IMG/VR virus record: IMGVR_UViG_3300044510_000143
Location: 1 to 25,462 of that record
Reading direction: 5' to 3' (one strand)
DNA from: a virus
DNA length: 25,462 nucleotides
Of this stretch, positions 9,178 through 23,405 are shown in pieces. The position numbers and the translations under genes are program-made. Within the stretch, counting starts at the first letter, position 1. Every line of letters begins with the position of its first letter. The notes beneath the pieces are model-generated. The model saw nothing but the letters and a program-made list of their open reading frames with translations. It was not told where the DNA came from and searched no databases.

Positions 9178-10197
9178 ATGCCATATTTTAATTATAATAA
9201 TGCAAAAATTAGTATAACTGGACAGGCATTTATGGCCGAATCAGTGGGTATTTCCATGGAAAATGCACTTTCTCCCTCCTTTCTTCTGAACAGAAGAAGC
9301 TCTGAAAACTATATCCCAGAAGATGGCATGCGGGGCTCTTTATCTTTAAGATATTATCTAACTGGAGTAGATCCTTTAAAAAACTTCTTGAAGAATGAAA
9401 AAGATGTAATATCTATAAACTTTAACGGTCTAGAAATAAAAAGCGGATATTTAACTTCGTATGGGTTTGAGGCCTCTCCATTCTCCCCTGTTATTGTAGA
9501 TGCAGATATAACGTTTTATGATACTTTAGTAGGATCATTTTTACCTTTGAAAGAGACAAATGAGCCTCCAAACTTTGTCACTTTCAAGTCTTTGAGTTTC
9601 GACGTGACCGGCGCTGACTTAAATGATAATACAATTTCTTTCTCTTATAAATACGATTCCACAATAGAGCCGCTTTACACAGTGGGTCAGACTACCCCTA
9701 AAGAGGTAAGATTTTTAGAGAAATCTCAGAATTTATCAGTAAAGGCTTACGATTTGGGCAATATTTTCTCCCATACGGGCAAATTTATAACCGCCAACGT
9801 GTCAATTGGCACAGAATCTTACGACATTAAGGGAATTTTGACTTCAAAAGAGACCTCTGCTTCGTTCGGAGATAAAATCATCAGTTCCTTAGAGATAACG
9901 CAAAGTACTTACGGTAATAAACCGATCGTCAAAGATGTTTCCCCCTCGTCTGTTGCTTGGGGAAATGAAATTCTTATATCGGGTAGCAATTTGGACACTA
10001 CAACGGCTGTCCTATTTAAACACAACTTATATTCTACAAAAATAACTCATTTTGGCGAAAATATAATAAAAGTAAAAGTGCCCAAATTTGCTAGAAGTGG
10101 AAGTTTTACTGTAATTAATTTAGCTGGAGAAACAAGAGTGCCAGAAGACTCCCGAAGTCAAGCCGGTGGATTTTCAGATGGCATTAAAATAACATGA
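9178..10197 (+). CDS. IPT/TIG-domain virion protein with tail-tube-like N-terminal domains
   Basis: This 339-residue protein is the first of five overlapping rightward genes. Residues about 5-125 and 130-243 look like two related beta domains: each has an N-terminal strand pair, a Gly-containing SGYL or IKGIL strand, and an end of the type VDADITFYD or IISSLEITQ. The overall impression is of phage tail-tube folds, but this is inference. Residues about 248-339 are a clear IPT/TIG Ig-like domain: PIVKDVSPSSVAWGNEILISG, SNLDTTTAVLF, IIKVKVP and GSFTVINLAG. The start is supported by AAGGG 8-10 bases upstream of the ATG. Its stop overlaps the next gene as ATGA. It could be a decorated tail-tube or distal-tail protein. 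Host-surface contact is a possible role for the Ig-like part. Confidence 0.65.
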   Translation: MPYFNYNNAKISITGQAFMAESVGISMENALSPSFLLNRRSSENYIPEDGMRGSLSLRYYLTGVDPLKNFLKNEKDVISINFNGLEIKSGYLTSYGFEASPFSPVIVDADITFYDTLVGSFLPLKETNEPPNFVTFKSLSFDVTGADLNDNTISFSYKYDSTIEPLYTVGQTTPKEVRFLEKSQNLSVKAYDLGNIFSHTGKFITANVSIGTESYDIKGILTSKETSASFGDKIISSLEITQSTYGNKPIVKDVSPSSVAWGNEILISGSNLDTTTAVLFKHNLYSTKITHFGENIIKVKVPKFARSGSFTVINLAGETRVPEDSRSQAGGFSDGIKIT

Positions 10198-10916
10198 TTA
10201 TAAGCGGAAAAATTGGTGAAACGATTAAAGTTACTGGAAAAAATTTCTCCACGGTAACTAGGGTTAATCTTTTAACGGAAGACTGTCAATTTGAGGTTTT
10301 AAATGATAACTTGATGAATATAGTTATTCCCTCCTTTGGGACCTCTTCGTTTCCCGTATTTTCGTCTGATTATACAAGTAGCTTGTCAACTGGAGTAGAT
10401 AAAATAAGCGTTTATCCAGCCCCTTTGGCCTTAGATAGGCATACTGGAATGTATTTGGATACCATTCAGATGTCTGGACTTTATTTCTCTGGGGTTACTG
10501 GCGTTAAACTTAACAATATAGAATGTCCATTTTCGGTGCTTTCTAACGACAGCATAAATTTTGTCATACCTTCTGGCGATACTAGATCAACTATCAAATT
10601 GCAAACCATAGATGGATTAGAGTCTTTATCTGATTTTAAATTTTTCCCAGAAATTCTCATAACAGGCTTCAATCTAAGCAGTGCCACTACCGGACAGAAT
10701 TTGCAAATACTAGGCAAATATTTCTTCCCCGAACTTCTTTTGGGGACTGACTCGAAATTTATGGTTTCATTTAATGGAGATCAATCCACGGGATCTTTTA
10801 CTAGAATAGGAAATTTTATTTTATCTGGATTAATACCTACTGGAGCCATCTCTGGAGAAGTCAAAATTGCTAAAAATGCCGAAGCAACCGGGTTAATTGA
10901 ATATTATCAATCATGA
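10194..10916 (+). CDS. IPT/TIG Ig-like repeat protein (about three domains)
   Basis: The 240-residue protein starts at an ATGA overlap with the preceding gene and ends in another. It consists of about three IPT/TIG-like units: residues 1-75 (IISGKIGETIKVTGKNF, VTRVNLL), about 80-155 (YLDTIQMSGLYFSGVTGVKL, INFVIPSGD) and about 155-240 (ILITGFNLSSATTGQNLQIL, ISGEVKIAK). IPT domains are Ig-like folds used in surface and adhesion proteins. There is no signal peptide or membrane segment, which fits a virion part rather than a secreted protein. The first unit begins immediately at the start Met with no leader, as if the preceding protein's Ig array simply continues here. The precise role is unknown; a fibre or tail decoration is inferred. 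Confidence 0.65.
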   Translation: MIISGKIGETIKVTGKNFSTVTRVNLLTEDCQFEVLNDNLMNIVIPSFGTSSFPVFSSDYTSSLSTGVDKISVYPAPLALDRHTGMYLDTIQMSGLYFSGVTGVKLNNIECPFSVLSNDSINFVIPSGDTRSTIKLQTIDGLESLSDFKFFPEILITGFNLSSATTGQNLQILGKYFFPELLLGTDSKFMVSFNGDQSTGSFTRIGNFILSGLIPTGAISGEVKIAKNAEATGLIEYYQS

Positions 10917-11692
10917 GTATTTCATTTAATATCCAATCTAACCAACCTAGTCTTTCTGCGTCTGTTTTGCAAAGCGGTAAGAAATCTAGCGCTCAAGCTG
11001 GATATACTACTCATGTTTATGGCGGCGACAATTTAAATAATTTGACTGGCGTATTCTTAATAGGCTCTACCCCGGAAGTGTCTAATTTGTTAGATATTCC
11101 TAGCGGGCAATTCGGTACGAACCAAAGCCAAAACGTTACATTTAACGTCAACGCCGTGACTTTTAATACTCCTAGACTAAAATCAGATATATATTCCCTT
11201 AAAGTATCAGACCAATTTGGAAAATCATCTCAGATATCTGATGCTCTTAAAATATTAGATAATTCAATCATAGCTATAGAAACTTTCGAAAGTGAAGAAT
11301 CTGAGCTTATAGGAAATGACGCGAACTACTTTAGCGCCACCGATATCAATAATACCTTTGGAGGGGTTGAAATTAAATCTTTTGATTTAACCAGTGCGAA
11401 AACTGGTATATGTATAAGTTTGTTCGATAAGATGGGAGAATATGCTGACAATATAGGATCTTCTACTTTTAGATTGACTTGGACAGGAGATGCGTCAATC
11501 GACTATGGCGAGATGACCACTTACGACGTAACGACTGAAGGCGGAACAGAATATTGTTGGTCTGGAGATTTTACTCCGTTGCCAATTGGAACATATGGTC
11601 GATATTCTATTTCATTTGTATCTGGAAACTTTTCCCCCGACGCCGGGACGAATTTTAGAATCGGTCTATTTTATATGAAGAAGAGGGCCTAA
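10913..11692 (+). CDS. IPT-like protein with shared C-terminal virion domain
   Basis: This 259-residue protein starts at an ATGA overlap. Residues about 10-115 form one Ig/IPT-like unit (AGYTTHVYGGDNLNNLTGVFL, VTFNTPRLKSDIYSLKVSD). After a short acidic linker (ETFESEESE) comes a distinct domain, residues about 139-259, which is closely repeated at the end of the 753-residue protein downstream. Shared landmarks are KSF.L, GSSTF.L.W.GD, NYG or DYG, DVTTEGG, CW.G.FT.LP and GTYGRYSI.FVSGNFSP. Each copy has two cysteines, which could pair. The domain is not one I can name. A common C-terminal module on two co-transcribed proteins suggests a shared docking or ligand-binding function. Confidence 0.6.
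   Translation: MSISFNIQSNQPSLSASVLQSGKKSSAQAGYTTHVYGGDNLNNLTGVFLIGSTPEVSNLLDIPSGQFGTNQSQNVTFNVNAVTFNTPRLKSDIYSLKVSDQFGKSSQISDALKILDNSIIAIETFESEESELIGNDANYFSATDINNTFGGVEIKSFDLTSAKTGICISLFDKMGEYADNIGSSTFRLTWTGDASIDYGEMTTYDVTTEGGTEYCWSGDFTPLPIGTYGRYSISFVSGNFSPDAGTNFRIGLFYMKKRA
11327..11689 (+). repeat. Duplicated C-terminal domain, copy A
   Basis: Codes for residues 139-259 of the 259-residue IPT protein. By eye more than half of the residues match copy B over about 105 positions, with identical runs DVTTEGG, TYGRYSI and FVSGNFSP. DNA conservation is lower, so the duplication or exchange is not recent. Confidence 0.8.
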
Positions 11693-11695
11693 ATT

Positions 11696-13957
11696 ATGGA
11701 ATTTTCTGGAACATTTGGTAAAGTTATTCAGTTGACTGGAAGGAATATATATAATATACCTGATTCTAGAATTTATATCAATTATCCAGAGGAGACGAAC
11801 AGAATCCTATCTTTTTCTGGAAATGGAGAAACTGGGATATATTTTTCTTTGCCGCGCTTAACAGAAAAAACAAATTCTATCATTTACTACAATACGATAA
11901 ACTATTCCATAATTACTGGAATAAAATATATTGATATTCCTTTCGTATCTGGATTTTCTCCCGTCTCTGGGCGATGGGGAGACACTATCCACGTTAGCGG
12001 AAAAGAGTTTATAGAAGTCACTGGAGTTTTCGTTGGAGACAGACCATCTGAAAACTTCTTCACTTCGGGGGAAAATAATTTATTTTTCACCATACCAGAT
12101 AAAGCTTCATTAGGGCCGGTAGAAATACGTACTACGGGCGGAACCGTAAGTACTTCTTTCTCCGGCATCTTTAACACTGGAAGTTTTACGGGAGACTTAC
12201 AGATAATAGTCCCCCCGATTGCTATAAGTGGTTTTACCCCAGACAGAGCTAAGTATAATGAAGAAATTTTTGTTACCGGCAGAAGTTTTCAAAAAGTTAA
12301 TCTAATTAGCTTAACCGGAATACGTAACCTAATTGATTTGGACGTGTTCGACATATTAGGGACTACGGGCATAAAGTTTAGATTACCGAGCGGCGTTTTA
12401 AACGCTAACCCATTTAGATTGAGCAGCGTCGGTTTCGTTTTAGATGGAGAAACAACAGTCCCAACCGGATTCGAAGTTGTAGAAACCGAAGATAAATTAT
12501 ACATAACCGGATATTCTATTATTAACATAATAGATAACACGGGCAAATACCAAGATATAATTCCAATTTCAGGTACGAACATGCAGGGAAGATCATTTTT
12601 CTTTCAAGGATATACTATTAGTGGGGAAAGACCGAATTATATTGAAAGCCTTAGTTATAATTATATAAATAATGAGTATGTTGAGCTTGAAGTCCCAAAG
12701 GAAATTATAAGGGGTCCTATTTATATAAGCGGAGAAGAAGGCCTCCGAAGAAGCGAAGATCATTTTACGCCAATCCCAACAATTTTTGAAACGTCTTCAA
12801 AATATTTGACTATAGGTACAGAGTTCAAGATTAAAGCTAGAAACGCTTCTGAAATATATAAAGTTTTAGGTATAAGCGGATTTAACCAATATGAGAATAA
12901 AACTGGAATCTACATAGTATCCAATCAAGATTTTTCTTTCGTTTCCGTGCAGGAGGAGCAGGTAGGAAAATACGCTTCCGACAATTACTTTGGCAATATA
13001 TCTTTGAACTTTGATTCTTTACATGATAGATATCCCTCTGGAATAAAGACTGGCCACGTCTTAATAACTGGACTAATTAATAACTCCTTTGTTGGAACTG
13101 GTTTTTTATTTTTGGCAAGCAAAAACAATTTGGCAAGCGAATTTGACACGAACATTTTTACTAATATATTAAATTTAAAAAATAGCATAGAAACTAATTA
13201 TGAAATACCTGATTTCCAAGACGCATTATTTACTGGAGTAACCTTCATAGACTCTAAAATCCCAGTAATACTTGGATTTAAAGAAAGGGTCGCTAGAAGC
13301 GGAGAACTTGAAGTGACTGGAAAATATTTAATGTCTATCACGGGATTTTTATTAAAAGGCTTTTCAGAAACTGGATCAATAAACAGTGGAAATTTCGTGG
13401 GAATCCCAGAGCAAGGCATTGTTACTAAACTTGATGAAGCCTCATCTTCGAATGTATATGAAGCGCAGCAGGTAATAACAATAAGAACTCAAGACCTAGG
13501 GTTTACCGAAAAAAGCGGATCAACCTCCATAGAGAGGGCTTATTCAGAGCTCCCCGTGAAAACACCCGAGGCGGTCGGAAGCGTTACTACATTTGCTTCG
13601 GCGGCAGAATTGAATAACGCGATGGCTGGGACGGAGGTAAAATCTTTTAGTTTATCAGATCCTAAAACAGAATTATGCTTAAAAACCCTTGATATAGCTT
13701 TGGGCTATGGCGATAACGTGGGGTCATCCACTTTTAACCTGTCTTGGGTTGGAGACGTTCCTATAAATTACGGCAACCTAACAGTCGAAGACGTAACCAC
13801 CGAAGGCGGGGTAAATTCTTGTTGGCAAGGTAATTTTACCTCTTTGCCCGCTGGTACTTATGGAAGATATTCTATAACTTTTGTTTCCGGTAATTTTTCT
13901 CCTAACGGGGGGGCTCTTTACAACATAGGTGTATTTACATTCTCTAAATTATCATGA
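11696..13957 (+). CDS. Large multi-IPT/TIG Ig-like protein, candidate fibre or adhesin
   Basis: The 753-residue protein starts 3 bases after the preceding stop. I count about six IPT/TIG-like units over residues 1-600, recognised by recurring lead strands such as GKVIQLTGRNI, GDTIHVSGKEFIEVTGV, NEEIFVTGRSF, QDIIPISGTNM and GELEVTGKYLMSITGF, each followed about 40-60 residues later by a FxxP or xVP strand. PFVSGFSPVSGRWG and IAISGFTPDRAKY are typical IPT openings. Residues about 631-753 repeat the C-terminal domain of the preceding protein. It has no signal peptide, no membrane segment and few cysteines. Size and build suit an elongated fibre. Receptor binding is inferred from the fold and the location beside tail genes. 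Confidence 0.7.
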   Translation: MEFSGTFGKVIQLTGRNIYNIPDSRIYINYPEETNRILSFSGNGETGIYFSLPRLTEKTNSIIYYNTINYSIITGIKYIDIPFVSGFSPVSGRWGDTIHVSGKEFIEVTGVFVGDRPSENFFTSGENNLFFTIPDKASLGPVEIRTTGGTVSTSFSGIFNTGSFTGDLQIIVPPIAISGFTPDRAKYNEEIFVTGRSFQKVNLISLTGIRNLIDLDVFDILGTTGIKFRLPSGVLNANPFRLSSVGFVLDGETTVPTGFEVVETEDKLYITGYSIINIIDNTGKYQDIIPISGTNMQGRSFFFQGYTISGERPNYIESLSYNYINNEYVELEVPKEIIRGPIYISGEEGLRRSEDHFTPIPTIFETSSKYLTIGTEFKIKARNASEIYKVLGISGFNQYENKTGIYIVSNQDFSFVSVQEEQVGKYASDNYFGNISLNFDSLHDRYPSGIKTGHVLITGLINNSFVGTGFLFLASKNNLASEFDTNIFTNILNLKNSIETNYEIPDFQDALFTGVTFIDSKIPVILGFKERVARSGELEVTGKYLMSITGFLLKGFSETGSINSGNFVGIPEQGIVTKLDEASSSNVYEAQQVITIRTQDLGFTEKSGSTSIERAYSELPVKTPEAVGSVTTFASAAELNNAMAGTEVKSFSLSDPKTELCLKTLDIALGYGDNVGSSTFNLSWVGDVPINYGNLTVEDVTTEGGVNSCWQGNFTSLPAGTYGRYSITFVSGNFSPNGGALYNIGVFTFSKLS
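13586..13954 (+). repeat. Duplicated C-terminal domain, copy B
   Basis: Codes for residues 631-753 of the large multi-IPT protein. It aligns without large gaps to copy A from the EVKSF motif to the last residues. Both cysteines of copy A (in the CLK/CIS and CW positions) are kept. Confidence 0.8.
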
Positions 13958-14328
13958 GTCATTTAATTTTTATTGAACCGTTAGAGATATCCGGCTTTTC
14001 CCCTAAAATGGCTGGAACTGGATTTAATTTTTTAATTACCGGAAAGAATTTCGAAGACGCCACGACTGTTTATTTCTTAAACCAATTTGAAGAAAGGTTT
14101 ACTACTCCATTTTCATTAGATCCAGCTAAGAATATAACTGGAAGGATACCCTATCTGAACCCCCCAGAGGGCTTTTATAAAATCGGGGTAGAAAACGAAA
14201 TAAGTACAGTAGAAAAATGCTGCATACAGATAACTGGCTTATCCTTCCCGCCAATTACTGGATTAACTGACTCCACAACATACTATCTAAAATGGCATTC
14301 TGAAACGGGAATGGTGTGGCAACAGTAG
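13954..14328 (+). CDS. Small single-IPT-domain protein
   Basis: The 124-residue protein starts at an ATGA overlap with the large IPT gene and closes the operon. Residues about 5-92 form one IPT/TIG unit (PLEISGFSPKMAGTGFNFLITG, KNFEDATTVYFL, ITGRIPYLNPPEGFYKIGV). The remaining 30 residues (GLSFPPITGLTDSTTYYLKW, ending VWQQ) may be a separate short cap or the start of another module. The role is unknown; shared transcription points to the same virion structure as its neighbours. Its stop abuts the stop of the opposing gene directly. Confidence 0.6.
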   Translation: MSHLIFIEPLEISGFSPKMAGTGFNFLITGKNFEDATTVYFLNQFEERFTTPFSLDPAKNITGRIPYLNPPEGFYKIGVENEISTVEKCCIQITGLSFPPITGLTDSTTYYLKWHSETGMVWQQ

Positions 14329-15062: not shown

Positions 15063-15091
15063 ATTATGCCATTCGAGGACCACCTAGTCAA
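15063..15091 (-). promoter_or_regulatory. Sigma70-type promoter of the Rad52-like gene, predicted leaderless
   Basis: On the minus strand: TTGACT (15091-15086), a 17-base spacer, then CATAAT (15068-15063) with an extended TGG before it. Only 5 bases separate the -10 box from the ATG at 15057, so transcription should begin at or inside the start codon. The -35 box overlaps the last codons of the upstream GT9 gene. Confidence 0.6.
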
Positions 15092-16253
15092 CCTTAAAGA
15101 TGTAAAAATTCTCCATGTCCCTCCAGAACTCTTCGCTGTCTATAACCCCGCAATATTCTGGCCTCAGACTGGAGATGGGAGCGTTCTTCTTCCAAGCCGC
15201 AACGCTAGGATATATTTTACCTTCCGAAATTAAAAACTTATTAGATTTATAAACTAAATTTTGTACCCCGATTTCTTTAATTTTTTCTATATCTGTTGGG
15301 TTAGGGGACAGCTTTTGAGAAATAAAACCAAAGTCTAAATAGTCGAATTTCTTTTTATCAACTTCTTCTTTGCTCATCTCGCTTATGAGGACACAGTTTA
15401 AGCCTATTTTTTGTAAGCTTTTAACAAACAATGGGTCATTATTTTCGTCTATAAAATAAACTATTTGCTCGATTTTCCCCTTAAAACTCTTTAAAATGTC
15501 AATGTTTATTGGGTTTTTAGTGACAATGTTACATTTAGTTCTCTTTAATTGTTCTAATAGAAATTGTTCATTGTGATATAGGTCCATTCTGACCAGCAGG
15601 GTGTCGATTCCGTTAATCTCTATAACGGAGTTTGGAATCATTTCGATGTTTATTTTATTAAAATTCGGTCCACGTAATATGGTGGTAAGATTAATCCTTT
15701 CCTTAAGTCCAAGCATTTCAAATATTTTATTTGCAATATATTCTGGCTTTATATTGTTTATGACTTTAGGATTTTCGTTTGCAGAATACGAAGGCTTGTG
15801 TCCATTTCTATCTGGCTCTATTAGAAGAACATCTTCCTCCTTCGACCAGTAAGGCTTGGAGTGCTCTTTAAACATGTTTGGATATAGCCCCAAAATCTTT
15901 GTATAAGCGGACGCCAAATGAATTGGGAAACTGTCTATGCCTACGTGAAGCAGAGATCTTCTAACTACATAGGCTAATTGATTAATATTGGTTTGGCCAT
16001 TCAGATTGATGCAATTATGGAGCTTTGGCTCCTCTTTGCCGCCAACCTGTAAAATATTTATTCCATGATCTCCCAAAACCGGAGAAATGAAATCTAGAAC
16101 TTCTTCCCAATAATCGTAACGGCGAGAATTAAATTTAGCAAAGCCATGCAGAGTTATGTACTTATCAAACGGTATAGGGAAAAACTTTTCAAAAATGAAA
16201 GGTTTATCTATCTTTAAACCGCAAGAAGTAGCGTAAGACTCAAGAATGTGCAT
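15084..16253 (-). CDS. GT9-type glycosyltransferase, C-terminal (nucleotide-sugar) half plus extra domain
   Basis: The 389-residue protein begins in the middle of a GT9 (heptosyltransferase-like, GT-B) fold. KYITLHGFAKFNSRRYDYWEEV (residues about 31-52) is the start of the C-terminal Rossmann domain. INILQVGGKEEPKL, then LNGQTNINQLAYVVRRS and LHVGIDSFPIHLAS (65-115) are the sugar-nucleotide-binding signature, including the GxDS..xHLA motif. The N-terminal half of the fold is missing here but is found at the end of the upstream gene, which overlaps by 14 bases in another frame. Residues about 195-389 are a further alpha/beta region that I do not recognise. No ribosome site is visible before the ATG, so coupling or frameshifting is likely. 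The acceptor (host surface sugar, modified base or virion) is unknown. Confidence 0.65.
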   Translation of the reverse strand: MHILESYATSCGLKIDKPFIFEKFFPIPFDKYITLHGFAKFNSRRYDYWEEVLDFISPVLGDHGINILQVGGKEEPKLHNCINLNGQTNINQLAYVVRRSLLHVGIDSFPIHLASAYTKILGLYPNMFKEHSKPYWSKEEDVLLIEPDRNGHKPSYSANENPKVINNIKPEYIANKIFEMLGLKERINLTTILRGPNFNKINIEMIPNSVIEINGIDTLLVRMDLYHNEQFLLEQLKRTKCNIVTKNPINIDILKSFKGKIEQIVYFIDENNDPLFVKSLQKIGLNCVLISEMSKEEVDKKKFDYLDFGFISQKLSPNPTDIEKIKEIGVQNLVYKSNKFLISEGKIYPSVAAWKKNAPISSLRPEYCGVIDSEEFWRDMENFYIFKVD

Positions 16254-18165
16254 ATTTCAAATCAAAGGCAATTTTATCTTTACCATTATGTAAGTAATTT
16301 AAAAATCTCTGTGTACCAGCATGAGCTAGGTAAGCCACCTCGAAGAATCCTTGATGTTCGCCCGCGCCCTCCAACCAGAGTAAATTATCCATTTGCGGGA
16401 TATAATTCAAGACCTTAAATACGTAAGGATTTCCATCTAAAATATCAAAGTATTCGGGTTTAGTTGCGACATAAAGATTATGATCTGGATAACTGTCTTT
16501 TATGCACTTGAATAAGCTGGTCGACATGAAGATATCTCCGGCGCTCTCTGGAATTACGAAGAGGATTCTTTTTCCATTATCGTCTTTGCTCAAAAGTCCC
16601 TCAAAGGAGACTTTCTTATTCTTTTGATTATCCTTGGACGCCTGCTGTCGGAAGAAGTTTTCTATATCTTCCCTTTTGGCCCCCTTTTGGATTTCATTCA
16701 TCCAATATTTGTAGCCATTATCATTTTCATCTATACCATCCAGCCTAAGGATATTCTTGTACAGAGAAAGGATCCACTTGCCATCGTCCTCAATATTGTC
16801 GATCTTACAATTAGGATCTTTCTCCTCTGTCTTTATTTCAAATGCATCTGAGGTTATCTCTGGGAAGGAGTCGACCTTCTTTTCGATTAATCCGCCGATA
16901 TTTTCCACCGAGAAGTTTTTAATAGTCCATTCTCGAGCCTTTTCCCCCATCCCCCTTCTCTCTTGGGGGCGCATCTTAAAGACCTTGTTTATCTGCTTGG
17001 CTATGGACAATGGATAAGTAGAGGCTTTTCTAAATTCGGTGCCATGCTCTCTATACTCAGACCAATCCAAAGGAAGGGATGCAGCTTCCTCCTCACACAT
17101 CTCTTCTCCGCAACTGTAGTTCGTGACTAGGGTAATAAGCTCTGTGTATTTGGCCTCTTGAATGGGTATTTCCTGTCCACCAGAAGTAAATGGGTGAACA
17201 TACACATCCATTAAATTATAAACTTCATTAAGTTCTTCTTCGGAAATGCCCAAGCCGACGTTTGTCGTCATTTGGGCTTTATCAGCGGAACAAAATTTAC
17301 ATTTGAGGTCTTGGCCGCGAAATGGTTTTATTTCATAATTTAAACAACCCTTACAAATGTAAGTTGTTAGAATTTCATTTTTATCTATTTGATATTCGTC
17401 GGCTAGCTTTAGAATATTCCAACCTTCTCCGAAGTGGGTATGTAAAAGTAGTCTAGTATTTTTAGCTTCCGGATTAGACTGCTTCCACATTTTGTACCCT
17501 TCTAATAAATTGGGTGCGCTCTTTCTCAATTGATTTCTGAAAACAAAGCCGACGACGAAAGCATTCTCGTCTATTGAAAATCTTTTCCTAAGATCTTTTC
17601 TTTCGTGATCTCTTAATCTAAAAAATGATTTTTTATCTACTGCTCCGTGGACGGTTTCCACGTTTTTGTATCCTAGTTTATTTAATTCTTTTGTAGCGAA
17701 ACTACTCCAAATCCAATAATTTTTAACTTTCTTGGCCGCTTCGATTGCAGAGGGGAGAATCGGCAATGAATCTAATGTAGTCCAAATGACAGAATTGATT
17801 TTATTAAACCAAGGCTTATTTATCGCAAAATCCACGCCCCAAATATCTTGCGTGGCTATATAGACATCGGGTTTCTCTTCCGCTATTACTTTGTCGAGAT
17901 AATATGCCCCATAACCGGCCAATCTTTCAAAATTAGGATCTTTTCTAATTTCATTTAATTCTCTTTCATCATTAGGCAAACATCCAAGAGACCTCCAAGG
18001 AGTCCTAGAAAGATGGGGATGTCCATGCGGTATTCCACAGCAATAATGAACAATGTCGTATTTATCAGACTTATATAAATGACTTAAAATAGACTTGGCA
18101 TTTCGCCCAAATCCAGTTTTAGCCAGTGAAAAATCTGTTTGGAGGAGGATTTTTTTCTTGCTCAT
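16240..18165 (-). CDS. GT4-like glycosyltransferase fused to DUF4214 and to the N-terminal half of a GT9 enzyme
   Basis: The 641-residue protein has three parts. Residues 1-435 are a GT-B (GT4-like) glycosyltransferase: ILLQTDFSLAKTGFGRN at the start, VVGFVFRNQLRKSAPNLLEG (204-223), LLLHTHFGEGWNI (239-251), and the donor-site region DVYVHPFTSGGQEIPIQEAK (320-339). Inside it lies a zinc-ribbon-like insertion, Cys271-x2-Cys274 and Cys289-x2-Cys292. Residues about 462-510 (WILSLYKNILRLDG, GYKYWMNEIQKGA) look like a DUF4214 module. Residues 531-641 are the N-terminal half of a GT9 enzyme (RILFVIPESAGDIFMSTSLF, GNPYVFKVL), ending at TGA where the GT9 core should continue. The start ATG overlaps the preceding stop (TAATG). 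Confidence 0.7.
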   Translation of the reverse strand: MSKKKILLQTDFSLAKTGFGRNAKSILSHLYKSDKYDIVHYCCGIPHGHPHLSRTPWRSLGCLPNDERELNEIRKDPNFERLAGYGAYYLDKVIAEEKPDVYIATQDIWGVDFAINKPWFNKINSVIWTTLDSLPILPSAIEAAKKVKNYWIWSSFATKELNKLGYKNVETVHGAVDKKSFFRLRDHERKDLRKRFSIDENAFVVGFVFRNQLRKSAPNLLEGYKMWKQSNPEAKNTRLLLHTHFGEGWNILKLADEYQIDKNEILTTYICKGCLNYEIKPFRGQDLKCKFCSADKAQMTTNVGLGISEEELNEVYNLMDVYVHPFTSGGQEIPIQEAKYTELITLVTNYSCGEEMCEEEAASLPLDWSEYREHGTEFRKASTYPLSIAKQINKVFKMRPQERRGMGEKAREWTIKNFSVENIGGLIEKKVDSFPEITSDAFEIKTEEKDPNCKIDNIEDDGKWILSLYKNILRLDGIDENDNGYKYWMNEIQKGAKREDIENFFRQQASKDNQKNKKVSFEGLLSKDDNGKRILFVIPESAGDIFMSTSLFKCIKDSYPDHNLYVATKPEYFDILDGNPYVFKVLNYIPQMDNLLWLEGAGEHQGFFEVAYLAHAGTQRFLNYLHNGKDKIAFDLKYAHS

Positions 18166-18761: not shown

Positions 18762-19931
18762 TTATATTCTCTTCAATTCTGAAAGTTTTGTATATACTTT
18801 GATATCTTGGACACCAATAACGTCAGCAAAAATGGCTCCATCAAACTTTCTTCCTTTAACTATAACAATGTTTTTCTCTTTTGGCAAGCCATTATTTATA
18901 GAATCGCATTCTTCCATTTTTTTGCTAAAAATCATTACTTTGGCAATACCGGTTTCGTCAGAAACCATTGCTTTATAATACTTTGTTTTTTTCTCTTTAG
19001 AAGTGCCCGTCCAACACTCATCCACCCGACAAACGAATATAACCTCGCTATTAAGGGGAAGGGCGTCTATTTCCTTTATAGAAATGAGATCTGGCCTCTT
19101 CTCTAAGAATATATCTCTGAGAGTCTTACCGTAAGTATACCCCAAAAGCATTTTCTCGTAATACCAATTAGCAAAGTTTTCTGATTTACTATTTTTATTG
19201 TAAATATCTAGATATGGTTGATATTTCTTTTTAATCGTCTCGTATCTCGACTCTTTTATGATAGACTTGCCTTTTTCGTCTTTAAACTGAACAAGATGCT
19301 TGAGAATAGCTACTAAGTCGTAATTCTTTTCTTGCCCGAAATTAAAGATATACCTCTTCTCTCTGTCCGTTAAGAGGTTCCAAAGTTGAGCTTCCAGAAC
19401 TACTTTAGAGCGAGATTGCTTGAATCCTTCTAGAGCGCCCGCTTGAATTAGAGCAGATAAAATACCGATGTTAAGTTCGGCTTCTTCGGCGGCCTTAAAG
19501 ATCTCAAATTTATTGCCAAAGATATTTTTAAAATTATTAATTTTCTCAATAGACTTTTCAGAAATTCCCTTTACAGACAACAATCCAAATCGGATGTTGC
19601 CGTCTTCAATTGAAAAATCTAACTTTGATTTAATAAGGTGAGGAGGAAGTAACTTTATGCCGAAAGAATTCATCTCTTTGTGGATCTTGGAAATTTCAGA
19701 TATCGGGTCCGGCTCATGCCTCGTCATCTTTAAGAGGGATAAGAAAAATTCTTTAGGATATTTAAATTTGAGATAAACAGTACAGGCAGCAAGAGCTGAA
19801 TAAGAAATGCTATGAGAATTAGAAGTAACAATTCCCTCGGCGTAAAAATTATGATCGGGATGGTCGACCTCTAAATCCAAAGTCGGCTTGATGCCTATTG
19901 GCGTAATGGATTTAATTTTAAGAGTTTGCAT
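18762..19931 (-). CDS. dnaE: DNA polymerase III alpha, C-terminal part preceded by a C-terminal half-intein
   Basis: The 389-residue protein starts with a 38-residue C-terminal half-intein (MQTLKIKSITPIG, DLEVDHPDHNFYAEG, ending IVTSN) and continues at Ser39 as the polymerase: SHSISYSALAACTVYLKFKYPKEFF is the conserved finger-to-helix region of DnaE. Further parts are the tandem HhH region (about 70-150; FGLLSVKGISEKSIEKI) and an OB-fold-like region (about 275-365; EVIFVCRVDECW, MVSDETGIAKVMIFS). The splice junction has Asn38 and a Ser +1 nucleophile; the penultimate residue is Ser rather than the usual His, as in cyanobacterial DnaE inteins. The ATG lies in the same frame as the upstream polymerase gene, 27 bases after its stop. 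AAGAAG precedes it. Confidence 0.9.
   Translation of the reverse strand: MQTLKIKSITPIGIKPTLDLEVDHPDHNFYAEGIVTSNSHSISYSALAACTVYLKFKYPKEFFLSLLKMTRHEPDPISEISKIHKEMNSFGIKLLPPHLIKSKLDFSIEDGNIRFGLLSVKGISEKSIEKINNFKNIFGNKFEIFKAAEEAELNIGILSALIQAGALEGFKQSRSKVVLEAQLWNLLTDREKRYIFNFGQEKNYDLVAILKHLVQFKDEKGKSIIKESRYETIKKKYQPYLDIYNKNSKSENFANWYYEKMLLGYTYGKTLRDIFLEKRPDLISIKEIDALPLNSEVIFVCRVDECWTGTSKEKKTKYYKAMVSDETGIAKVMIFSKKMEECDSINNGLPKEKNIVIVKGRKFDGAIFADVIGVQDIKVYTKLSELKRI
19818..19931 (-). other. Split intein, C-terminal half (Int-C)
   Basis: It has 38 codons, from the start Met to Asn38. Block F is DLEVDHPDHNFYAEG, containing the DHNF core, and block G is IVTSN followed by Ser of the extein. It is similar in length to the C-half of cyanobacterial DnaE inteins (36 residues). 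Confidence 0.9.
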
Positions 19932-19958
19932 TTTAAATCTTCTTTAAATGTTCCATCG

Positions 19959-21737
19959 CTAATAACTGCATATAATGCTATGGTTTTGAGAAATGATGTC
20001 TCTTAGAGGTCTCATTTCCTTGTCTTCGCACAAAAACTTATGATCCATAGAGCATTTAATTTTTCTGCCATCTTCGAGTTCGACTTCGTATAATTCTTTA
20101 CGATTTTTATGGACATCCAGAACTTCTACGTAGTGATCTTTCTCATCTCTTACGGAATACGCCAACACCTTATCCCCTTTTTTAATTTCGAAAAGCATTT
20201 TATCTCCATCAATTGTTTTTACAATAGTGTCTTCCGAGAGACATTTGTTAAAGCTGTAGTTTGCAGAATCTTCCAATACTTTCCAAAGAACGTCACCAAT
20301 TTCTGTCTCTAATTTATTCTCTCTAATCTTAAGAGAGATTTTCTCTTTCCACGCTTTGACTTCTTCAATTTTTTTCTTACCCACAATTCTTCTTAATATT
20401 TCCGCTTCATCAAGGGTAAATCCTATTTTGTGAGCCATCCTCATCATCTGTTCCTGATAGAGACAGACTCCCCCAGTTTTATTTAGAATATCATCAAAGA
20501 AAGGATGGATTGATTTAGTAGTGCTTGTGTTAGTGAATAGGGCGTATTGGTCAACATAATCTAACGCGCCCGGGCGAGCCAATGCTAGAACCGCGCTTAG
20601 TTCGTCAAGACTCTTTGGCTTGACTTTATTACATACTTTGAAGTTTGTGTCGGCTTCGATTTGGAAAAGACCGTGGGGAGTTTTTAATTCTTGTAGGTTC
20701 TGGTAAATAATCGGGTCATTTAAATTAATATCTGTTATTTTAATATTAATTTGTTTACATACGTCATCAACTACAGACACGCTTCTAAGACCAAGAAGAT
20801 CTAGCTTTACGTTAAACAGGGAAATCCAATTCATGTCATACGAACTAACGAAGCTTTCCTTACCGGAGGTCAGCTCCGTCGGACAAGAATCATTAATTTG
20901 CTCGTAAGACAAGGAAACCGCCGAAGGGTGGACGCCTTTATTTTTAATTAAACCCCTGAGCTTCAGAGCTATATCATAAATAGTCCTGTTTGAATCGCAC
21001 CAATTTTTGAATTTTTCCTCTTCTAAATACGCCTCTTCGATGTCTTTTACTTGCCCGAAAACTTTGGGAATAAGTGCAGTAACCTCATTCATCTCTGACT
21101 CAGACTTCTCTTCAATAATCTTCCCGCACTCCTTCATCAGAAGTTTGCCGCTAAGAGTATTCAAAGTCAAAACTTTTGACGTCTTTCCTTTAAACTTGCC
21201 CTCTAAATATTCTATTACTTTTTGTCTATTGTAATAACAGATATCCAAGTCGACGTCGCACATCAAAGAGCCATCTAGATAAGTAACCCCGTCAACAATC
21301 TGCTTTTTAGCGCGAACTTTGGATACGAATCTTTCGAAATACAAATCGTATTTGATCGGATCCACGCCAGTAACACCAATCAAATAAAGAACCAAGCTGC
21401 CAGCCGCGCTACCACGCCCTAACCCAGTTGGAATATCATTTTCTTTGCAAAAGTTAATAACATCCCATACGAGTAGAACATAATCAATAAATTCGAGCTC
21501 CTTAAGAATGTCTAGCTCGTATTTTACTCTATCTGTATATTTTTTATATTCTGGAGAATCTTTTGTTAGGTTAAGATTTTTGAAACCCCTCAAGCAAAGA
21601 GACCGAAGAAACTCGTGATTAGAACAGTCTTCGCTTATTTCCAACTTATGCTTATGCCGGTTATCTATATTAAATTGAGGCAATCTTACGCCATGAATGG
21701 CTAAATTATAATTTTCAAATGTAATATCTGTTGACAT
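19959..21737 (-). CDS. dnaE: DNA polymerase III alpha catalytic core followed by an N-terminal half-intein
   Basis: The 592-residue protein is the palm, thumb and fingers of a DnaE-type Pol III alpha without the PHP domain. GLGRGSAAGSLVLYL (residues 105-119) and DPIKYDLYFERF (126-137) match the family. The catalytic aspartates are Asp163 and Asp165 (CDVDLDI) and Asp313 (KLDLLGLRS). GLFQIE, LALARPGALDY, LYQEQMM and the LRRIVGKKK region follow in family order. The extein ends at NYSFNK (residue 498), and residues 499-592 are an N-terminal half-intein. After trans-splicing to the next gene's product the chain would be 849 residues. It starts 2 bases after the preceding stop, without a clear ribosome site, so translation is probably coupled. 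The PHP domain is supplied by a separate gene two genes upstream. Confidence 0.93.
   Translation of the reverse strand: MSTDITFENYNLAIHGVRLPQFNIDNRHKHKLEISEDCSNHEFLRSLCLRGFKNLNLTKDSPEYKKYTDRVKYELDILKELEFIDYVLLVWDVINFCKENDIPTGLGRGSAAGSLVLYLIGVTGVDPIKYDLYFERFVSKVRAKKQIVDGVTYLDGSLMCDVDLDICYYNRQKVIEYLEGKFKGKTSKVLTLNTLSGKLLMKECGKIIEEKSESEMNEVTALIPKVFGQVKDIEEAYLEEEKFKNWCDSNRTIYDIALKLRGLIKNKGVHPSAVSLSYEQINDSCPTELTSGKESFVSSYDMNWISLFNVKLDLLGLRSVSVVDDVCKQINIKITDINLNDPIIYQNLQELKTPHGLFQIEADTNFKVCNKVKPKSLDELSAVLALARPGALDYVDQYALFTNTSTTKSIHPFFDDILNKTGGVCLYQEQMMRMAHKIGFTLDEAEILRRIVGKKKIEEVKAWKEKISLKIRENKLETEIGDVLWKVLEDSANYSFNKCLSEDTIVKTIDGDKMLFEIKKGDKVLAYSVRDEKDHYVEVLDVHKNRKELYEVELEDGRKIKCSMDHKFLCEDKEMRPLRDIISQNHSIICSY
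19962..20243 (-). other. Split intein, N-terminal half (Int-N)
   Basis: It has 94 codons, starting with Cys499 of the polymerase gene. Block A is CLSEDTIVKT. A further strand is KKGDKVLAYS. Block B is LEDGRKIKCSMDHKFL, with the SxxH form of the TxxH motif (His68 of the intein). It ends at a TAG in the region where contiguous mini-inteins carry a loop. The layout is very close to the cyanobacterial DnaE Int-N. Confidence 0.93.
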
Positions 21738-21739
21738 TT

Positions 21740-22003
21740 TTACTTTTTATTTTTGCCGCCGCTCTTGCGGTCCTTCTTCGGGGTCTTCTTTTCGGAATTT
21801 ATGCCGAATTTATTTTTTATTTCTTTTATCAGATTGTCATTAACAATCAAAGCGGACTCCGCCGAAGCTGAATTAGTAAAATTAAAAAATACGTCAGCTT
21901 TATGATCTCCATTTTTCTCCTCTTGGACGGTAATCAAATAGTAATCTATTTTTTGTGACTCCACCCTCTCCAAAATATCTATAATAAAATCTAAAGATGC
22001 CAT
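21740..22003 (-). CDS. Small basic-tailed protein of unknown function
   Basis: This 87-residue protein lies between the exonuclease and the polymerase core, 3 bases after the former and 2 before the latter, so it is clearly part of the replication operon. Residues 1-65 look like a small alpha/beta domain (LDFIIDILERVESQ, DYYLITVQEEKN, DVFFNFTNSASAESAL). The tail is rich in Lys and Arg (TPKKDRKSGGKNKK) and may bind nucleic acid or the polymerase. I recognise no family. A polymerase or exonuclease accessory, comparable in position only to small subunits such as theta, is one possibility. Confidence 0.6.
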   Translation of the reverse strand: MASLDFIIDILERVESQKIDYYLITVQEEKNGDHKADVFFNFTNSASAESALIVNDNLIKEIKNKFGINSEKKTPKKDRKSGGKNKK

Positions 22004-22006
22004 AAA

Positions 22007-22645
22007 TTAAATTTCGATCATGTATTTGAGCTTGTTCCAAACCTTGAGGTTTAACTCTAAATCGATAATTGCGTCATGCAGGTTATCGTAGTCGTGTTGA
22101 ATATTATACTCTTTCCCCAAAGTTAGCAAGTTAGTTTTAATGCCTTTTTGCTTTTTGTGGTAATTTCTATACTGATACTCTAGTAATGAATCTCCGCTCT
22201 TAAATGGGATTGACATTTTTATGCCTTTAGCTAGAGCGCTTGTATCTAAGAATTTATCATACAGATGGGAAGAGTCCTGCCCCATGTATTTATAAAACTC
22301 TTTAATTAAATAAATATCGAACCCAAGCACATTATGGCCAACGATATAGTCTGCGTTTTCAAGCCAATCTTTAATCGTCGGGAAACATTCTTCCGGGGTA
22401 ATTCCTAACGTGTCTATGGTTTTTTGGTTATATCTCGTAATTCTAGCAGCTTCGGCACTAATTTTCAAATCCGTGGCCCACTTTATGTAGAAATTCTTTT
22501 CATCAATCTTCTTGTCGCCCTTGACTTTAAGCATTGCTATTTGCCAAGGAAGATTGTGACAATAATTAAGGCAGAGATTAAGGGTCTCCGCGTCGAAGAA
22601 TACAAAGGTTTTTTCGTTTTGGAATCTTAATAAATGGTTATCCAT
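22007..22645 (-). CDS. DnaQ-like DEDDh 3'-5' exonuclease (proofreading subunit candidate)
   Basis: The frame opens at a TTG at 22669, but the ATG at 22645 has GGAAGGAG 7 bases upstream and is the better start (212 residues). The three exonuclease motifs are complete: Exo I FFDAETLNL (Asp18, Glu20), Exo II GHNVLGFDIYLI (Asp110) and Exo III HDAIIDLELN (His190, Asp195), which makes it DEDDh. WQIAML in the first helix region and LDTSALA after motif II are usual for DnaQ-type enzymes. The gene lies between the PHP-domain gene and the polymerase core and overlaps the former by 8 bases, so it is very probably the proofreader of this Pol III. No C-terminal polymerase-binding tail like that of E. coli epsilon is evident. 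Confidence 0.88.
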   Translation of the reverse strand: MDNHLLRFQNEKTFVFFDAETLNLCLNYCHNLPWQIAMLKVKGDKKIDEKNFYIKWATDLKISAEAARITRYNQKTIDTLGITPEECFPTIKDWLENADYIVGHNVLGFDIYLIKEFYKYMGQDSSHLYDKFLDTSALAKGIKMSIPFKSGDSLLEYQYRNYHKKQKGIKTNLLTLGKEYNIQHDYDNLHDAIIDLELNLKVWNKLKYMIEI

Positions 22646-23405
22646 TATTTTGCTCCTTCCAATTTTCAAAGCAAAATTCGTTGCTGGTCATATGTTCGAA
22701 CTCTGGTTTGTCCAATTTACTTCTATTGTTAATACAGCGAAACGTAAGATAAGCTTTAAAGTCTGATTTGTTTTTGTAGTAAATGCTTTTCGTTTTTACT
22801 ATTTCGTATTTATCTTTGCAATAATTTAAAACATGCCTTTTTATTATATTATTAAAAGGTATGTCATTATGCTCCAGCATGAACTTGGGCTCACAAAAAT
22901 CAAACTCTGGAATACAAATTTTACCATAAAGAGTGTTCTGATATAAAAAAGAATCGTAGAAGGGCACGAAAAGGATTAAGTCTTTATTGCTCCATAGATC
23001 TTTTAATTCTTTGAAACTAATTCTTGGCTCATAATAGAAGCCATTTTGGGCTGCATAAGAATAAATTTTGATTAACTTTTGATATCCTTCTTTGCTCTTT
23101 GCAAAAATGACATATTTGCTGGTTCTATTTAAAGATTCTTCGTTTTTTTGCTCACAATTGTCACATATAGAAATCCTTAGCCCAAATCTGAGATCCATTT
23201 TGGCGTCTTTACCGTTAAGATAAGCCTCCAAAAATCCACCCATTGAATCATCAACTAAATAAAAATCCTTAAATCCTTCCTCGGAGCAAATGTCAATTAT
23301 GGAGTCGGGGCCGCCAGCCTTAGAGGATCCCTTTTTTTCTAAGGTTAATATGCTACGACCTAAGCTATAATGACTTTTCCAAATGGGGAGAACTGCTTCT
23401 CTCAT
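22638..23405 (-). CDS. DNA polymerase III alpha PHP domain as a separate protein, metal site degenerate
   Basis: This 255-residue protein matches the N-terminal PHP domain of DnaE. KSHYSL (residues 10-15) is the first motif. GFKDFYLVDDSMGGFLEAY (44-62) corresponds to G...IAITDHG.M.G..EFY. FGLRISICDNC (74-84) corresponds to the GxE motif. SKYVIFAKSKEGYQKLIKIYS is the typical LLA.N..GY.NL..L.S segment, and EPRISFKEL follows. The end (AYLTFRCINNRSKLD, then FEHMTSNEFCFENW) matches the PHP-palm linker. Metal ligands appear lost: HxH is replaced by Ile8-x-Lys10, DH by Asp52-Asp53, and the Glu by Arg77. It is therefore probably structural. A sigma70-type promoter sits directly before its ATG, and no ribosome site is seen. 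Confidence 0.8.
   Translation of the reverse strand: MREAVLPIWKSHYSLGRSILTLEKKGSSKAGGPDSIIDICSEEGFKDFYLVDDSMGGFLEAYLNGKDAKMDLRFGLRISICDNCEQKNEESLNRTSKYVIFAKSKEGYQKLIKIYSYAAQNGFYYEPRISFKELKDLWSNKDLILFVPFYDSFLYQNTLYGKICIPEFDFCEPKFMLEHNDIPFNNIIKRHVLNYCKDKYEIVKTKSIYYKNKSDFKAYLTFRCINNRSKLDKPEFEHMTSNEFCFENWKEQNNG

What the first reader, a model, noticed from the sequence alone, without database searches (positions are those of the whole stretch)
19818..20243. Split intein in a phage DNA polymerase III alpha, with both halves adjacent and in frame
Seen: the polymerase core gene ends in a 94-residue Int-N (Cys1, block A CLSEDTIVKT, block B SMDH), and the next gene starts with a 38-residue Int-C (DHNF, IVTSN|S). 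Known: cyanobacterial DnaE is joined by a split intein, but its halves are far apart in the genome and the cut is at Y|CFNKSHS. Here the cut is four residues further on, at FNK|SHS, with Ser as the +1 residue, and the halves are neighbours. I infer efficient trans-splicing to an 849-residue chain. An independent invasion of the same conserved motif in a phage polymerase would be a new split-intein locus.
Basis: partly seen in the sequence, partly recalled or inferred. Interest (0 to 1): 0.9.

Follow-up and report, generated by a model that had tools for sequence, protein, structure and literature searches.

The report
Split intein in phage DNA polymerase
An uncultured phage makes its DNA polymerase as two separate proteins that should join themselves with a split intein, and the short gap between the two genes still holds the remains of the selfish endonuclease gene that once sat there.

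Summary
A phage DnaE core gene ends in a 94-residue Int-N. The next gene, 27 nt on, starts with a 38-residue Int-C. The interruption falls at FNK|SHS. In the 80 closest viral DnaE loci the site is empty in 79 and carries the same split intein in one (L002). The spliced product (849 aa) matches uninterrupted relatives.

The reading "new split-intein locus by independent invasion" is only partly right. The same site is an intein hotspot in many phages: split with a free-standing EDxHD homing endonuclease between the halves (at least 12 contigs), split with an HNH endonuclease, with a truncated endonuclease, with none, and contiguous. Cultured Rhodococcus phages carry contiguous, unannotated inteins there. 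The architecture is the "fractured gene" type reported in 2009.

New here: read in another frame, the window's gap encodes ISDGTFKEDLKCKL, the remains of the EDxHD endonuclease's C-terminus (best of 50,854 six-frame 12-mers; HMM E = 1.3e-5). The adjacent, endonuclease-free split intein is therefore most likely a deletion derivative of a homing locus. It is not a cyanobacterial-type DnaE intein. Trans-splicing is well supported by sequence but untested.

The parts
20244..21737 (-). N-extein: DnaE (Pol III alpha) NTPase/palm and finger part, 498 aa, ending ...SANYSFNK
   Evidence: Pfam PF07733, PF17657; PHROG 405 DNA polymerase E 1.9e-119
19962..20243 (-). Int-N, 94 residues, Cys1, block B C-SMDH; followed by stop TAG 19961-19959
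   Evidence: TIGR01445 above cut-off; relatives and fold
19932..19958 (-). 27-nt spacer between the two genes, with a second in-frame stop (TAA)
   Evidence: translation; alignment of the upstream sequences
19928..19963 (-). Fossil of the EDxHD endonuclease C-terminus in another reading frame: ISDGTFKEDLKC (continuing KLLKLNPL inside the Int-C gene)
   Evidence: top of 50,854 six-frame 12-mers, 19.9 bits against 15.8 for the next and a maximum of 14.3 in 40 random windows; HMM E 1.3e-5
19818..19931 (-). Int-C, 38 residues, DHNF block F, C-terminal Asn38, +1 Ser
   Evidence: TIGR01443 above cut-off
18762..19817 (-). C-extein: DnaE C-terminal part, 351 aa (SHSISYSALAAC...)
   Evidence: Pfam HHH_6; NCBIfam DnaE profiles continue at the same profile position where the N-part stops (752/752)

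Best explanation
A natural split intein interrupts the phage replicative polymerase DnaE at FNK|SHS. The two genes are translated separately from one operon; Int-N and Int-C should associate, splice, and release an 849-aa polymerase. The locus descends from a mobile 'fractured gene' element in which a free-standing EDxHD (Vsr-like) homing endonuclease gene lay between the halves and overlapped the start of the Int-C gene. In the ancestor of the window and L002 the endonuclease was deleted except for its last codons, which now form the leader of the Int-C gene. Because that deletion did not fuse the reading frames, the intein stayed split. Shown by sequence: anatomy, empty sites, relatives at every stage, the fossil. 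Inferred: splicing, homing activity of the ancestor, the direction of change.
For: Intein motifs and profiles. 79 of 80 nearest DnaE relatives are uninterrupted exactly at FNK|[SA]HS; the spliced product matches their single ORFs (67-72% identity over 849 residues for L005, L010, L030 and L055). Both halves evolve under strong purifying selection between window and L002 (dN/dS about 0.05 for Int-N and 0.02 for Int-C, with synonymous sites near saturation in Int-N). Related inteins at the same site have a roughly 300-aa ORF between the halves. Its profile matches the solved EDxHD domain 3r3p (E 4e-4, annotated as a mobile intron protein) best, then Vsr weakly, with NUMOD3 in 7 of 11. The window's gap holds the end of that ORF; L002 holds it too, with one stop inside; L110 holds a longer remnant (E 4.8e-14); L091/L092 keep a 93-aa remnant. 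A contiguous natural homologue at the same site (L086, 58-59% identical) and a model built with the window's halves in the alignment (pLDDT 88, about 95 in the intein) match gp41-1 and Npu DnaE inteins.
Against: No splicing or cleavage data exist. The polymerase of this phage has not been shown to need joining; the two parts could work as a complex. The fossil is short (12 residues in unconstrained DNA, 20 in all); its strength rests on position and on its repeat in L002. L086 could mean that the contiguous form came first.
Confidence: 0.87

Rival explanations
1. An independent split intein arose or arrived here without any endonuclease: a plain adjacent split intein, with the gap being ordinary intergenic DNA.
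For: No endonuclease gene is present in the window or in L002.
Against: The gap encodes the endonuclease C-terminus in the frame and position seen in full loci, in two genomes; the same site carries the full element in many phages.
Confidence: 0.06
2. The two halves no longer splice; the polymerase works as two non-covalently associated subunits carrying intein relics.
For: This phage already encodes PHP and exonuclease parts of DNA polymerase as separate genes, so a multi-subunit enzyme is conceivable.
Against: Cys1, the SMDH block, DHNF and Asn+Ser are all kept; dN/dS is as low as or lower than in working genes; the interruption lies inside a conserved motif of the polymerase.
Confidence: 0.08
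3. The split is an artefact: a contiguous intein read with wrong stops, recoding or assembly error.
For: The halves are in the same frame.
Against: Two different in-frame stops in the gap, different stops in L002, all three stops used to end genes in the window, and an ATG at the same place in most of the split loci.
Confidence: 0.01

Closest known systems
'Fractured gene' split inteins with a free-standing EDxHD/Vsr-like homing endonuclease (Dassa et al. 2009, NAR 37:2560; cited in PMC12350094 and PMC10448857; paper itself not held, content from memory)
   Same: Phage enzyme gene interrupted by a split intein; relatives of the window have the EDxHD endonuclease between the halves; nearest solved inteins include gp41-1, a member of that set
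   Different: Host gene here is DnaE at FNK|SHS; the window has lost the endonuclease and keeps only a fossil. Whether this site was among the 2009 loci could not be checked
Cyanobacterial split DnaE intein (Npu, Ssp)
   Same: Host protein DnaE; same fold; similar split position; SN at the C-terminus and DHNF in block F
   Different: Site is four residues away (Y|CFNKSHS against FNK|SHS); +1 is Ser, not Cys; halves adjacent instead of far apart; separate branch in the tree; 30% identity
Contiguous DnaE inteins of Rhodococcus phages (Grayson gp103, NiceHouse gp90)
   Same: Same FNK|SHS site in a phage DnaE
   Different: Contiguous, no neighbouring endonuclease gene, about 25-34% identical to a relative (L099) of the window's intein; annotated simply as DnaE
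I-Bth0305I EDxHD homing endonuclease (PDB 3r3p)
   Same: Catalytic domain of the ORF found between the halves in relatives (E 4e-4)
   Different: A mobile-intron enzyme; the ones here lie in split inteins

Membership tests
Natural split intein | Nucleophile 1 and blocks A/B in one protein, block F/G with terminal Asn and +1 Cys/Ser/Thr in another | tested here: met
   Cys1, CSMDH; DHNF, TSN|S; TIGR01445 and TIGR01443 above cut-offs
Natural split intein | Each half fused to one part of a protein that is continuous in relatives | tested here: met
   79 of 80 nearest relatives are continuous at the junction
Natural split intein | Trans-splicing activity | not testable with these tools
   needs co-expression
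Cyanobacterial split DnaE intein | Insertion at Y|CFNKSHS with Cys +1 | tested here: not met
   Insertion at FNK|SHS with Ser +1
Cyanobacterial split DnaE intein | Groups with Npu/Ssp DnaE inteins | tested here: not met
   Npu and Ssp pair together (99/97) apart from the window
Fractured-gene split intein locus | Split intein inside a phage or viral enzyme gene | tested here: met
Fractured-gene split intein locus | Free-standing EDxHD endonuclease gene between the halves | tested here: not met
   Absent in the window; only a fossil of its C-terminus. Met in relatives L083, L088, L089, L090, L093, L095, L097, L098, L099, L114, L127, L130

The most novel reading that the evidence does not exclude
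Endonuclease genes that overlap the start of the Int-C gene make split inteins, and loss of the endonuclease then strands the intein in the split state, because most deletions do not restore one frame. The phage DnaE site shows every stage (empty, armed with EDxHD, armed with HNH, truncated, fossil only, contiguous), and L086 would be a re-fusion. This would be a general route to stable, endonuclease-free split inteins.
Probability: 0.35. Interest if true: 0.65.

Novelty: new member of a known kind. Interest (0 to 1): 0.5.

Why it matters
The site gives a natural series of states of one mobile intein in one gene, from empty site to armed element to disarmed split intein with a visible endonuclease scar. 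That makes the question of how endonuclease-free split inteins arise and persist directly testable. It also supplies a set of diverse split inteins, with close contiguous homologues and Ser at +1, for protein-joining work.

Tried and rejected
Single-sequence fold of the 592-aa N-half was useless (pLDDT 36). The papers library does not hold the 2009 fractured-genes paper, and several searches found no paper on phage DnaE split inteins. The dnaE interruptions of Bacillus phage KLEB27-3 and Rossellomorea phage phiT1 were checked and are not inteins at this site. Salicola phage SCTP-2 gp204, the best full-length hit in cultured phages, is a RecA-like protein. Whether contiguous L086 is a re-fusion could not be decided: its endonuclease-like tail (ELQKLNLMNQ) lies inside Int-C coding sequence, scores only E 0.04, its tree position is open, and no close relatives were found. 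Stop-codon recoding was rejected. The one bacterial hit, L110 in a Verrucomicrobiales MAG, looks phage-derived because its DnaE groups with viral ones; this was not pursued further.

Full report
What is there. The window is a 25,462-base virus record. On the minus strand lies a replication operon: primase-like TOPRIM gene, PD-(D/E)XK nuclease, a PHP-domain gene, an RNase T-type exonuclease, a small ORF, then the DnaE core. The core is interrupted after SANYSFNK. Int-N has 94 residues (20243-19962), Int-C 38 residues (19931-19818); both pass the curated cut-offs of the NCBIfam intein terminal models. The NCBIfam DnaE profiles stop at position 752 in the first protein and resume at 752 in the second. 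The two genes are separated by a TAG stop and 27 nt containing a TAA in the same frame.

More than chance. The 80 closest DnaE loci in IMG/VR were read at the junction. One, L002, has the same split intein; 75 read FNK|SHS (or a close variant) without interruption and four read FNK|AHS, also without interruption. The in-silico spliced protein (849 aa) aligns with single-ORF relatives of 850-869 aa at 67-72% identity. Between window and L002, Int-N and Int-C show dN/dS of about 0.05 and 0.02 (synonymous sites are near saturation for Int-N, so the first value is rough).

Relatives at the same site. An intein-only search and reading of the loci found related inteins at the same DnaE position in several states. 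(a) Split, with an ORF of about 300 aa between the halves: L083, L088, L089, L090, L093, L095, L097, L098, L099, L114, L127, L130. (b) Split, with Int-N running into a NUMOD4/HNH endonuclease: L094, L096, L122, L123 (Pfam for L094 and L122). (c) Split, with the endonuclease cut down to 93 aa: L091, L092. (d) Split and adjacent: window, L002, L110, L128. (e) Contiguous mini-inteins: L086/L087, L121, L133. Cultured Rhodococcus phages Grayson and NiceHouse have contiguous inteins at FNK|SH, unannotated.

The endonuclease. A profile of 11 of the ORFs from state (a) finds PDB 3r3p, the EDxHD enzyme I-Bth0305I, as its best match (E 4e-4); 3hrl and Vsr follow weakly. NUMOD3 is found in 7 of 11 members and the Vsr Pfam model in one. 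PMC3943268 describes EDxHD as a phage homing endonuclease family. PMC12350094 cites Dassa et al. 2009 for the EDxHD/Vsr family and for fractured genes with split inteins.

The fossil. In full loci the endonuclease gene ends inside the Int-C gene, in another frame. In the window that frame reads VISDGTFKEDLKCKLLKLN across the gap. A score matrix from eight full loci ranks ISDGTFKEDLKC first among all 50,854 six-frame 12-mers of the window (19.9 bits; next 15.8; maximum 14.3 in 40 random sequences of the same dinucleotide make-up). In L002 the top hit is INDGIFK*DLKC at the same place. An HMM of the endonuclease C-terminus gives E 1.3e-5 for the window, 2.8e-6 for L002 and 4.8e-14 for L110. Twelve of the residues lie in DNA with no present coding constraint, so this is not a by-product of the intein sequence. 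Window and L002 share the break, so one deletion in their ancestor is the simplest account; L110 and L091/L092 are separate losses.

Mobility. In the DnaE tree L002 pairs with the empty L003 (SH-aLRT 98) with the window outside, and L083 pairs with the empty L102: presence changes among near relatives. Inteins of L099, L127 and L130 are 50-53% identical to the window's although their polymerases are only 30-32% identical, which points to transfer between distant phages.

Fold. A model of the contiguous homologue L086, with the window's own halves in the alignment, has mean pLDDT 88 (about 95 in the intein) and matches gp41-1 (TM by target 0.9) and Npu DnaE (0.85) best in the PDB. The phage inteins are not members of the cyanobacterial DnaE set: another site, another +1 residue, another branch. 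The inner branches of the intein tree are weak.

How it works, and what is shown. Shown: anatomy, empty sites, kinship, fossil. Inferred from established intein chemistry: association of the halves, acyl shift at Cys1, transesterification to Ser+1, Asn38 cyclisation, and an 849-aa polymerase. Inferred: the ancestor homed by EDxHD cutting of empty alleles; after loss of the endonuclease the intein persists because the deletion left two reading frames and the Int-C gene's leader.

Verdict. The claim of a unique, independent invasion does not: it is a disarmed member of a widespread family of phage DnaE inteins at this site. The endonuclease scar and the graded series of states are the interesting part.

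Noticed in passing
window 22638-23405, 22007-22669, 21740-22003, 18762-21737: The phage's Pol III alpha is spread over separate genes: PHP domain, RNase T-type exonuclease, a small ORF of unknown kind, and the core (itself split by the intein).
   Followed up: partly
L083:271-1104: A free-standing LAGLIDADG endonuclease ORF sits between the exonuclease and dnaE in the phage that also has the EDxHD gene in its split intein.
   Followed up: partly
L123:4415-5014: Pieces of an MT-A70 methyltransferase gene (with a stop inside) lie between the HNH-fused Int-N and the Int-C gene.
   Followed up: partly
L107 (Salicola phage SCTP-2 gp204): A RecA/UvsX-like protein annotated as hypothetical seems to carry two inteins (CLPEDA...VSHN|SGKS and CLVADT...VVSHN|SGQI).
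   Followed up: no
L146, L147 (Rhodococcus phages Grayson and NiceHouse): DnaE carries a contiguous intein at FNK|SH that the deposited annotation does not mention.
   Followed up: partly
L070, L075, L076, L077: Empty sites that read SFNK|AHS: Ala at +1 could not serve as splicing nucleophile, so such alleles may resist this intein.
   Followed up: no
L088, L089, L090, L095 downstream of dnaE: A large ClpA/ClpB-like AAA ATPase gene follows the dnaE C-part in these phages (by eye).
   Followed up: no
window 9178-14328 and 15084-18165: A run of repeat-bearing surface-type proteins on the + strand, and glycosyltransferase-like genes on the - strand (weak Pfam match for 16240-18165).
   Followed up: no
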